From NCBI GenBank assembly GCA_002855745.1, contig NDWX01000017.1:1-35107 (forward strand): a DNA stretch of 35,107 nt. The letters run 5' to 3'. A program made the position numbers and the translations under genes. This DNA is from Thermofilum sp. NZ13 (GTDB lineage: Archaea > Thermoproteota > Thermoprotei > Thermofilales > Thermofilaceae). This document shows, piece by piece, positions 1 to 16,027 of the stretch (position 1 is the first letter of the stretch; each line of letters begins with the position of its first letter). The notes beneath the pieces were generated by a model, which was not told where the DNA came from, ran no database searches, and saw only the letters and a list, made by a program, of their open reading frames with translations.

Positions 1-2
1 GG

Positions 3-158
3 GAGGCTGTGGTCGGCGACGTGAGGTACGTCTACCTGACGGGGAGGGCCTGCAGCCTCCTCGCTCTGCTCGGCTATAGCCTCGATGAGGTGGCGTGCGG
101 CGAGGCAGCATTGAGGCTTATTCGACGCGCAGCCGGAGCTGCCTCCGGTACAGCATAA
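3..158 (+). CDS. C-terminal end of an unidentified protein (5' truncated by window edge)
   Basis: An open frame runs from the first bases of the window to a TAA at 156-158, giving about 51 residues that begin EAVVGDVRYVYLTGRA and end RRAAGAASGTA. No family is recognisable from this tail. The frame overlaps the 3' end of the opposite-strand SWIM gene by about 40 bases, so the two would be convergent. It may be the end of a real gene or a chance GC-rich open frame; the part that would decide lies outside the window. Confidence 0.3.
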   Translation, partial: EAVVGDVRYVYLTGRACSLLALLGYSLDEVACGEAALRLIRRAAGAASGTA

Positions 159-522
159 CCGTGGCGATGTGCGTACATATTCTTGCTTTGCGCACGTAGC
201 CGTAGGTCCTGAAGAAGCAGTCGCACCTGTACCTCCCCCGCTCACCCAGACGTTGTACCAGGGGTACGTGTCGCCTAACTCGGGCAAACCCTTTGACGAG
301 CCAGTGCTCCGCCCCAACTTTCTCAACCTTCCCCGCCAGAAGCCTGTACGTGGCCCTGTAAAACCACTCAGCGGGCTTATCCGGGAAAGAGGAATGAAGC
401 TCGCTTAACGCTTCCAAGAGGTCCCCGTGCTCCTCTGTTATCTTATCGCTACAGTAGCTAAAGAGGGCGCACCTCACCAGCGCCAACGCCAGCCTGTTCT
501 CACTGTTCCTTACCTTCCCCAA
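118..522 (-). CDS. SWIM zinc-finger domain protein
   Basis: This 134-residue protein has a CxC-x13-CxH pattern near its C-terminus (Cys100, Cys102, Cys116, His118; RYRCDCFF then RICTHI), which is the signature of a SWIM zinc finger. SWIM domains bind DNA or proteins and are common in small archaeal proteins of unknown role. The N-terminal 90 residues are helical-looking and match nothing I recognise. ATG at 522 is the only plausible start. The gene is convergent with the truncated frame at the window start and stands alone. SWIM assignment is by motif only; the biological role is unknown. Confidence 0.6.
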   Translation of the reverse strand: MGKVRNSENRLALALVRCALFSYCSDKITEEHGDLLEALSELHSSFPDKPAEWFYRATYRLLAGKVEKVGAEHWLVKGFARVRRHVPLVQRLGERGRYRCDCFFRTYGYVRKARICTHIATVMLYRRQLRLRVE

Positions 523-690
523 GTGAGAGCACCCACAGCGCCTTCTAGGTGAGAGAGACCGTCACCCCGGCGTGGTGCGACGATCTTTCAGGTAGCAGTA
601 GTCCAGGAGCCTCAGCTAGCCCCCAGCTCTGTCTCCACTTTCAGCCTACACACCGAAAGAGAGATAAACTCCTTAACCGGATGGAGTAGC

Positions 691-885
691 GGCGGGCCCA
701 GTTCCCACCCCGGTCAGAGGGCCGTGGGTGGGTGCCCCGCGCGGCGCGAGGAGGGGATGTGCCCGCGGCGACGCGGGCTGAAGGCCGCCCAGCCAGGGCG
801 GCCCCCCGAAAGGGGACCCATGACACCCCGCAAGGGGGCCCTCAGATCAGTGAAGGGGGCGGATGTGCCAGGCGCGGCCTTGGGG
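691..885 (+). ncRNA. GC-rich structured intergenic RNA candidate (element A)
   Basis: No credible gene lies between 523 and 962, but 700-880 is a chain of hairpins. They include CCCACC...GGGTGGG (about 703-737), GCCCGCG/CGCGGGC with a GCGA loop, GGCCGCCC/GGGCGGCC with an AGCCA loop, and CCCC-GCAA-GGGG. A weak TATA-like AGATAAAC (662-669) lies about 26 bases upstream of the proposed 5' end. The core 812-879 aligns without gaps to 14896-14963 (about 44 of 68 positions identical by hand count), with compensatory changes in a flanking helix. I saw no RNase P (CR-I, CR-V) or SRP (GGAAG/GCAG loop) signatures. Strand and ends are inferred. Confidence 0.4.
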
Positions 886-905
886 ATCGTAGCCTGAAGA
901 TTGAA

Positions 906-962
906 AGATGATGACCCATTGCAGCTCGGAGGCGTGAAGAAAAGGTTTCCGGTCTGATTTTT
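906..962 (+). ncRNA. C/D box sRNA candidate
   Basis: In order: a perfect C box ATGATGA (908-914), a degenerate D' (CTCG, 925-928), a perfect C' GTGAAGA (934-940) and a D box CTGA (954-957), followed by five Ts (958-962) that could end transcription. The 13-base guide upstream of box D is AAAGGTTTCCGGT. The size (about 52 nt) fits archaeal 2'-O-methylation guides assembled with L7Ae, Nop5 and fibrillarin. It abuts the 3' end of rps11 on the other strand. The weak D' box is the main doubt. Confidence 0.5.
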
Positions 963-14740: not shown

Positions 14741-14814
14741 AAGATCGAGAGCACCAGCACTAGAAACGCAGCTTTTCACTCTAAGCTTATATGCCGAAAA
14801 CAGGAAAAACCGCG

Positions 14815-14970
14815 TAGGCAAGGGGGAGTGGTGGGGAGCCGTGAGTTCCAACTCAGCCTCTATACCCCCGCCGCGTGGGTAGCCTGCTTAATACGGGAGA
14901 CCCATGATAGCCCCTAAGGGGAGTCTTCGACGAGTAGAGGTAGTGGGCACGCTAGGCGCAGACTATCTCA
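14815..14970 (+). ncRNA. Structured intergenic RNA candidate (element B)
   Basis: The 507-base gap between MEMO1 and rps2 has no credible gene. A good TATA box (CTTATATG, 14786-14793) lies about 26 bases before the proposed 5' end. The segment folds into a long hairpin (GGGGG...CCCCC with inner TGAGTT/AACTCA) enclosed by GTAGGC/GCCTGC. Next comes a core helix GGAGAC/GTCTTC holding CCATGATAG and CCCC-TAA-GGGG. The core 14896-14963 aligns without gaps to element A (812-879) with paired substitutions in the helix. It is antisense to the downstream flank of rps2. No known family signature was found. Confidence 0.45.
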
Positions 14971-15000: not shown

Positions 15001-15654
15001 TCAGACGACTTCTCCAGTTGTGAGTATTTTGGCCTCGAAGTCGGATAATGGTACGGGAAGCTCTCCGTTGGGTGGTAAGTCCCCGCGTGCTCTGAGAACC
15101 TCTCTTGCAAGGAGCCAATAGATGAGAGCTAGAGCCTTCCTTCCACGGTTGTTCGTCGGTATGATCAGGTCGACGTTTGTGATGGGAGAATCGCTATCAC
15201 ACAGTGCTACAACAGGTATTCCCATTTTCCCCGCCTCGACTATTGCTTGCTCATCTACTCGGGGGTCGGTGACGATCATCAGATCGGCTTCGGTGTAATA
15301 GGCTAAAGCTGGGTTTGTGAATGTTCCAGGTAGAACCCTACCTAAAATCGGTTTGCAGCCCACAACCCCGCAGAACTTTCTTACAGGTCTAAAACCATAC
15401 TGGCGTCCTGACACAGCCACGATTCTGCTGGGCTCATACCGAGCGATGAAGCGGGCGGCAATCCTGATTCTCTCATCAGTTTTCTTTACATCTAGGAGAT
15501 ACAGCCCATCGGGTCTAGCAGCGTAGATGTAAGGCTCCATAAACTTGCTCTTCATCCTTGTGCCTATCCTTACACCAGCTGTCAGGTACATTTCCAGTGG
15601 TATCAGTAGCTCTCCCTCAGCTATCTTAAGCTCATCCAAGCTCACGGGCTTCAC
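15001..15654 (-). CDS. rps2: 30S ribosomal protein S2 (uS2)
   Basis: A 217-residue uS2 with [71 protein letters not shown] and [20 protein letters not shown]. The frame stays open to 15786 (261 residues) and an ATG exists at 15708. However, a TATA-like CATTTAAAAACT (minus strand, 15689-15700) lies inside that extension and predicts a start near 15668. GTG 15654 then gives the usual archaeal length. The longer forms cannot be excluded. The usual rpoN-rpoK-eno neighbours are absent. Confidence 0.93.
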
Positions 15655-16027
15655 CTCAGGGAGTGAACTATGACTCAAGGCATCGTGAGTTTTTAAATGT
15701 TTCTCCATTCTAAGATGCACTAAAACTGTGATTGTCGATTTCAGATGCAGCCGGTAAGGATAATCACCGGAGCGGCGAGCAATCACCTGTTCTCGGCACC
15801 GTCACATGGCCGTCAGCCAGGTGTCGTGCTGCATGAAGAGAAGACACTCCCACAACAATGCACACAGCAGGCTGGCTAGCGCAAGGCATCCGCAATAGGA
15901 CCTACGACGCCCCGAAGATAGGGCTTCCGACCAGTAATGGAGTGAAGTTGCTAGCTGCTTCCTAAGGCGTGCATCTGGTTTATAAGCGAAAAGTAAATTA
16001 GACCCAGTGTAAATCCACCTAACGCTA
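15655..16027. other. Intergenic stretch upstream of rps2 without a supported gene
   Basis: If rps2 starts at 15654, about 370 bases lie before tRNA-Val. They include the presumed rps2 promoter (15689-15700) and several small potential hairpins, such as CACC...GGTG near 15797-15827, GTGTC...GACAC, and GCCC-CGAAGATA-GGGC near 15908. I see no complete C/D or H/ACA signature and no convincing similarity to elements A-C. Confidence 0.3.

What the first reader, a model, noticed from the sequence alone, without database searches (positions are those of the whole stretch)
812..879. Intergenic structured elements A and B share a 68-nt core with compensatory changes
812-879 and 14896-14963 align without gaps at about 44 of 68 positions. 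Conserved parts are the internal loop CCATGAYA, CCCC/AAGGGG and the end AGGCGC; the flanking helix differs in sequence but keeps pairing (GGAGAC/GTCTTC versus GGGGAC/GCCCTC with one mismatch). Both are in gaps downstream of, and antisense to, ribosomal protein genes (rps11, rps2), and both have TATA-like sequences about 26 bases before the proposed 5' ends. I could not assign RNase P, SRP, tRNA, 5S or C/D box identity. This could be an undescribed archaeal RNA family.
Basis: partly seen in the sequence, partly recalled or inferred. Interest (0 to 1): 0.65.

Follow-up and report, generated by a model that had tools for sequence, protein, structure and literature searches.

The report
Solo guide RNAs of archaeal TnpB
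The two look-alike elements are stray copies of the guide RNA that normally trails the gene for TnpB, the transposon-borne ancestor of the CRISPR enzyme Cas12, and this archaeal genome holds about 38 clear copies, half of them without the TnpB gene.

Summary
The A/B similarity is real (44/68), but it is the 3' third of a larger RNA of a known kind. Window ~697-876 is one of 38 clear copies in this genome of a ~180-190-nt structured RNA. Nineteen copies sit 2-256 nt downstream of, and on the same strand as, genes or remnants of one TnpB family (Pfam Cas12f1-like_TNB in 9/9). Each copy ends at ...GCCAGGCGCG followed by unique sequence. That is the anatomy of TnpB omegaRNA/reRNA: transposon right end plus guide. 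Nineteen copies are solo; about nine carry one promoter block 173-193 nt upstream, and both layouts recur in another genus. A model built without A or B finds A at 79 bits and B at 25.7 bits (E=3e-4), so B is probably a diverged solo copy. No Rfam family matches. Transcription, TnpB binding and guide use are inferred. The genome lacks both usual mobilising enzymes.

The parts
636..668 (+). Promoter block of solo element A: conserved box CACTTTCAG (636-644) and BRE/TATA-like CGAAAGAGAGATAAA (654-668)
   Evidence: Same box at 0-1 mismatches, 173-193 nt upstream of the core, in about nine of 19 solo copies; similar blocks upstream of RSNS8 solos and of several tnpB genes. Promoter activity inferred.
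697..876 (+). Element A: omegaRNA scaffold (solo copy, no tnpB)
   Evidence: 86% identical over 219 nt to the next copy; R1 79.1 bits on its 3' part; class I fold
704..732 (+). 5' hairpin H1 of element A
   Evidence: All four Watson-Crick types at its fourth pair across the family
738..745 (+). 5' strand of the long-range closing helix; its 3' strand is 867-869 plus 872-876, abutting the flank
   Evidence: Predicted in both classes; nearly invariant, so not tested by covariation
809..876 (+).
   Evidence: R1 79.1 bits, E=1.9e-16, model built without A
877..896 (+). Predicted guide region of element A (first 16-20 nt of flank; exact start uncertain by about 3 nt)
   Evidence: Flanks differ in every copy; no second match within 3 mismatches in the genome. 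Inferred by analogy with ISDra2.
14777..14793 (+). Promoter-like block upstream of B: CACTCTAAG, TATATG
   Evidence: Two mismatches to the family box; weak, and could be chance
14893..14960 (+). Element B: diverged or decayed solo omegaRNA, 3' core
   Evidence: R1 25.7 bits, E=2.9e-4 in the window, 0.016 in the genome
15893..15959 (+). Possible third, very weak copy
   Evidence: R1 18.9 bits, E=0.01 in the window; within the range of chance hits in other genomes (up to 20.4 bits)

Best explanation
Elements A and B are solo copies of the omegaRNA (right-end guide RNA) of a TnpB family expanded in this Thermofilales genome. Each unit is an RNA scaffold of about 180-190 nt whose 3' end is the boundary of the element. 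A transcript that reads on takes the next 16-20 nt of flanking DNA as its guide. In 19 copies the scaffold follows a tnpB gene or remnant. In 19 others, including A, tnpB is absent; about half of these keep a shared promoter block, so the RNA could be made independently and loaded in trans by TnpB from another copy. B is an old or diverged solo copy. Shown here: repeat structure, tnpB linkage, unique 3' flanks, conserved fold, recurrence in a second genus. Inferred: transcription, TnpB binding, guide use, action in trans.
For: 38 copies of at least 43 bits; 19 of 38 just downstream of TnpB-family genes or remnants, same strand; PF07282 in 9/9 members and a PDB profile search led by TnpB-like, Cas12m and TnpB chains; sharp 3' end with unique flanks; the same RNA directly after the homologous tnpB in isolate RSNS8, plus two solos there; compensatory changes in H1; A and B both found by a model built without them.
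Against: No expression or binding data. The left end and the TAM were not resolved. The RuvC-II Glu typical of TnpB is absent, so nuclease activity is open. No Y1 or serine transposase was found in the genome. B scores only 25.7 bits and H1 is not recognisable in it.
Confidence: 0.86

Rival explanations
1. The solo copies are only deletion remnants (MITE-like DNA) of the tnpB element. They came from functional omegaRNA units but are themselves inert and decaying; A and B are relics at different stages of decay.
For: Graded series of scores from about 90 down to about 20 bits; tnpB pseudogenes such as C8:23738-24361 with stops; B has lost H1.
Against: About nine solos keep a promoter block at nearly constant distance, and a similar block is kept in RSNS8 solos; H1 pairing is kept in solos through compensatory change; A keeps the whole scaffold.
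Confidence: 0.35
2. The RNAs guide a TnpB-derived protein that no longer cuts DNA and works as an RNA-guided regulator of host or element genes.
For: The residue aligned with the RuvC-II catalytic Glu is Ala, Val or Ile in all nine members aligned; solo guide RNAs with their own promoter would suit trans regulation.
Against: The RuvC-I and RuvC-III Asp are invariant, and an invariant Asp lies next to the Glu position and could replace it. The predicted guide of A has no second site in the genome within 3 mismatches.
Confidence: 0.15
3. B is unrelated to A; its similarity to the family is a chance match.
For: Genome-wide E-value of only 0.016; E-values of the model are rough; H1 is missing in B; no match in congeners by DNA.
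Against: 44/68 against a shuffled maximum of 38; window E=2.9e-4 with a model that did not use B; no searched genome apart from this one and RSNS8 exceeds 20.4 bits.
Confidence: 0.1

Closest known systems
ISDra2 TnpB reRNA/omegaRNA (Karvelis 2021, PMC8612924)
   Same: Non-coding RNA of similar length (~150 nt there) at the 3' end of tnpB and the element's right end; 3' tail taken from flanking DNA
   Different: No sequence similarity was sought between the RNAs; half of the copies here have no tnpB; no Y1 TnpA in the genome; the RuvC-II Glu differs
SisTnpB1 omegaRNA of Sulfolobus islandicus (PMC10640517)
   Same: Thermophilic archaeal TnpB with conserved right-end RNA and variable guide; tnpB-only units without tnpA also occur there
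   Different: SisTnpB1 has the classical D187/E271/D335 triad; promoter-bearing solo RNAs are not mentioned in the part read
sotRNA families RF02656 and RF02657 (haloarchaeal omegaRNAs, PMC12558985)
   Same: Archaeal omegaRNAs described as structured RNAs overlapping the 3' end of tnpB
   Different: The window does not match these models
TnpB/Fanzor proteins with a repositioned RuvC-II Glu (PMC10711439)
   Same: The canonical Glu position is not Glu; best PDB profile hit is TnpB-like protein L79
   Different: The alternative Glu six residues before the zinc finger is not met: an E/D sits one residue off in this genome and none is there in RSNS8

Membership tests
TnpB omegaRNA/reRNA | Lies at the 3' end of tnpB on the same strand | tested here: met
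   19 of 38 copies; gap 2-256 nt; also in RSNS8. Not met for the A and B copies themselves, which are solo.
TnpB omegaRNA/reRNA | Neighbouring protein is TnpB | tested here: met
   PF07282 above cut-off, 9/9 members; PDB profile hits. The NCBIfam guided_TnpB model scores only 16 of 100 bits, so the family is divergent.
TnpB omegaRNA/reRNA | Scaffold ends at the element's right end and is followed by variable sequence | tested here: met
   Conserved to ...GCCAGGCGCG(G), then different in each copy
TnpB omegaRNA/reRNA | Conserved RNA fold | tested here: met
   Same frame in two classes; H1 with compensatory changes; the 3' core helices vary too little to test
TnpB omegaRNA/reRNA | Transcribed and bound by TnpB; flank acts as guide | not testable with these tools
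   Needs RNA sequencing and RNP assays
TnpB omegaRNA/reRNA | Element left end preceded by a TAM | tested here: inconclusive
   Upstream sequences compared by eye; the left end is not defined
Classical TnpB nuclease | RuvC D-E-D triad | tested here: not met
   Both Asp invariant, canonical Glu replaced by Ala, Val or Ile, with an invariant Asp next to it
IS200/IS605 or IS607 element | Y1 TnpA or serine recombinase available in the genome | tested here: not met
   No PF01797 or PF00239 match
Rfam families (RNase P, SRP, sotRNA and others) | Gathering-score match over A or B | tested here: not met
   None; relaxed scans gave only weak hits far below cut-off; RNase P candidate is elsewhere

The most novel reading that the evidence does not exclude
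A TnpB lineage with a reorganised active site has turned its guide RNA into an independent gene: solo omegaRNAs with their own conserved promoter, kept in two archaeal genera and loaded in trans, that spread or act as guide-directed regulators in a genome that has neither IS605- nor IS607-type transposase.
Probability: 0.2. Interest if true: 0.75.

Novelty: new variant of a known kind. Interest (0 to 1): 0.52.

Why it matters
It turns an orphan RNA into a testable guide-RNA system in Thermofilales, adds an omegaRNA family that Rfam lacks, and offers a genome with equal numbers of tnpB-linked and solo guide RNAs. That setting suits two open questions: whether TnpB guide RNAs work in trans, and how such elements multiply without a recognisable transposase.

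Tried and rejected
Rfam at gathering and relaxed thresholds: no match for A or B; an asR3 hit on the opposite strand of A (18.6 bits, cut-off 46) is chance level. RNase P: candidate located elsewhere. My first alignment mixed strands because these loci are not oriented; redone. DNA search for B in relatives: only chance-level hits. Second target of the predicted guide of A: none. Relatives of this TnpB in viral contigs: none. First genome-contig scan with a single protein: nothing; with an alignment, only isolate RSNS8. [quoted passage not shown] Left end and TAM: compared by eye, not resolved. Repositioned-Glu TnpB type: motif not met.

Full report
Observation. Both lie 3' of and opposite to the ribosomal protein ORFs at 963-1409 and 15001-15786.

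A is part of a dispersed repeat. Searching the genome of the window (33 contigs, 1.88 Mb, about 99% complete) with window 660-884 gave 43 matches. The aligned copies define a scaffold of about 180-190 nt that starts near CAGTTCCC and ends at GCCAGGCGCG, after which every copy has different sequence. A covariance model (R1, 67 positions) built from 34 copies, leaving out A and B, finds 38 copies of at least 43 bits in the genome.

The neighbour is TnpB. Many copies follow a long ORF whose end carries CPxCG...CxxC...RDWAAAFNAAK. The protein hits Pfam PF07282 (Cas12f1-like_TNB) above the curated cut-off, and all nine aligned members match. A profile search of the PDB is led by TnpB-like L79, UnCas12m4a and a designed TnpB-like nuclease, with TnpB 8bf8 and 8h1j further down. 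The NCBIfam guided_TnpB model scores far below its cut-off, so the family is divergent. A genome search gave 13 uninterrupted near-full-length genes of this family, several broken ones, and about ten more distant TnpBs. Nineteen of the 38 RNA copies lie 2-256 nt downstream of such a gene or remnant, on the same strand; nineteen, including A, have none. An RNA at the 3' end of tnpB that coincides with the element's right end and runs into variable flank is the published anatomy of reRNA/omegaRNA; in ISDra2 the last ~16 nt come from the flanking DNA (PMC8612924).

Second genus. Among 60 related genomes only one, in another genus of the same family, has clear matches (three, 33-36 bits). It is Thermofilales archaeon isolate RSNS8: the named collection returned a contig of the same length, 19,520 bases, with the same RNA scores. 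One copy follows a 451-aa TnpB of the same family, 39% identical. The other two are solo.

Promoter block. A has CACTTTCAG at 636-644 and CGAAAGAGAGATAAA at 654-668. About nine of 19 solo copies carry this box at 0-1 mismatches, 173-193 nt upstream of the core. RSNS8 solos have ATCACTTTCAGGCTTC...TTTATAAGCC and a weaker version. A related block precedes tnpB in L083, L086, L087, L093 and L095. The simplest reading is that these solos are internal deletions that kept promoter and RNA. Transcription is inferred.

Structure. Aligned by class, twelve class I and fourteen class II copies give the same frame: a 5' hairpin H1, a long-range closing helix whose 3' strand abuts the flank, a central region that differs between the classes, and small 3' helices. 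H1 has real compensation: its fourth pair occurs as A-U, G-C, U-A and C-G; 54 of 57 cells at pairs 4-6 are paired and none of 20,000 shuffles reached that (hand-aligned distinct hairpins, and the shuffles ignore relatedness). The 3' core helices and the closing helix vary too little for covariation to test them.

Element B. R1 finds B as the second-best place in the window, 25.7 bits, E=2.9e-4. In the genome search it scores the same, E=0.016, inside a graded series of weak copies (31.8, 31.5, 28.6, 25.7, 23.8 bits). Apart from this genome and RSNS8 no searched genome exceeded 20.4 bits, though that search used stricter filters. B has a promoter-like block upstream, but H1 is not recognisable and the spacing is shorter. 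B is best read as an old or diverged solo copy; membership is likely, not certain.

Mechanism. Most likely the RNA is a guide scaffold for the TnpB family of this genome, read through into 16-20 nt of flank. In solo copies it would be made from its own promoter and loaded in trans. The predicted guide of A (877-896) has no second match in the genome within 3 mismatches, as expected if guides point to the element's own insertion site. Two things are odd. The residue aligned with the RuvC-II Glu is Ala, Val or Ile here and in RSNS8, while the RuvC-I and RuvC-III Asp and an Asp next to the Glu position are invariant. The repositioned Glu of Fanzor-type enzymes (PMC10711439) is not at its expected place. 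So nuclease activity is open. And the genome has no recognisable Y1 TnpA or serine recombinase, so the means of spread is unknown.

Verdict. The RNA is a known kind of thing, in a lineage found neither in Rfam nor in the papers searched. Many promoter-bearing solo guide RNAs, an unusual TnpB active site and no transposase together make it a new variant of the TnpB-omegaRNA kind. Literature coverage was limited to open-access papers.

Noticed in passing
window 906-958 (+): A C/D box sRNA (ATGATGA ... CGGA ... GTGAAGA ... TCTGA) conserved at 78-94% in about 15 genomes across the order; the best Rfam hit, sR12, is only 23 of 38 bits. In several relatives TATA-like sequence lies upstream; here the end of omegaRNA A lies about 30 nt before the C box, so the promoter of A may also drive this sRNA.
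   Followed up: partly
window 118-522 (-), and 1-160 (+): A small ORF with a SWIM-like CxC...CxH ending, and a winged-helix-like gene end, upstream of A. Relatives of both occur upstream of several tnpB or solo copies (L050, L056, L086, L087, L093, L095); no Pfam match. They may belong to a larger repeated unit.
   Followed up: partly
window 15893-15959 (+): A third, very weak match to the omegaRNA model (18.9 bits), about 1 kb downstream of B.
   Followed up: no
G000 contigs C14, C19, C1, C2, C12, C29, C10, C22, C28: About ten further, more distant TnpB proteins of at least one other family in the same genome.
   Followed up: no
L097 (G000:C24:1-2300): One full-length tnpB-omegaRNA unit starts shortly after what reads as a tRNA gene, which may show the left boundary of the element.
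   Followed up: no
L110 / L136 (RSNS8): One of the solo omegaRNAs in RSNS8 lies directly upstream of a gene that reads as a tyrosine recombinase of the XerA type.
   Followed up: no
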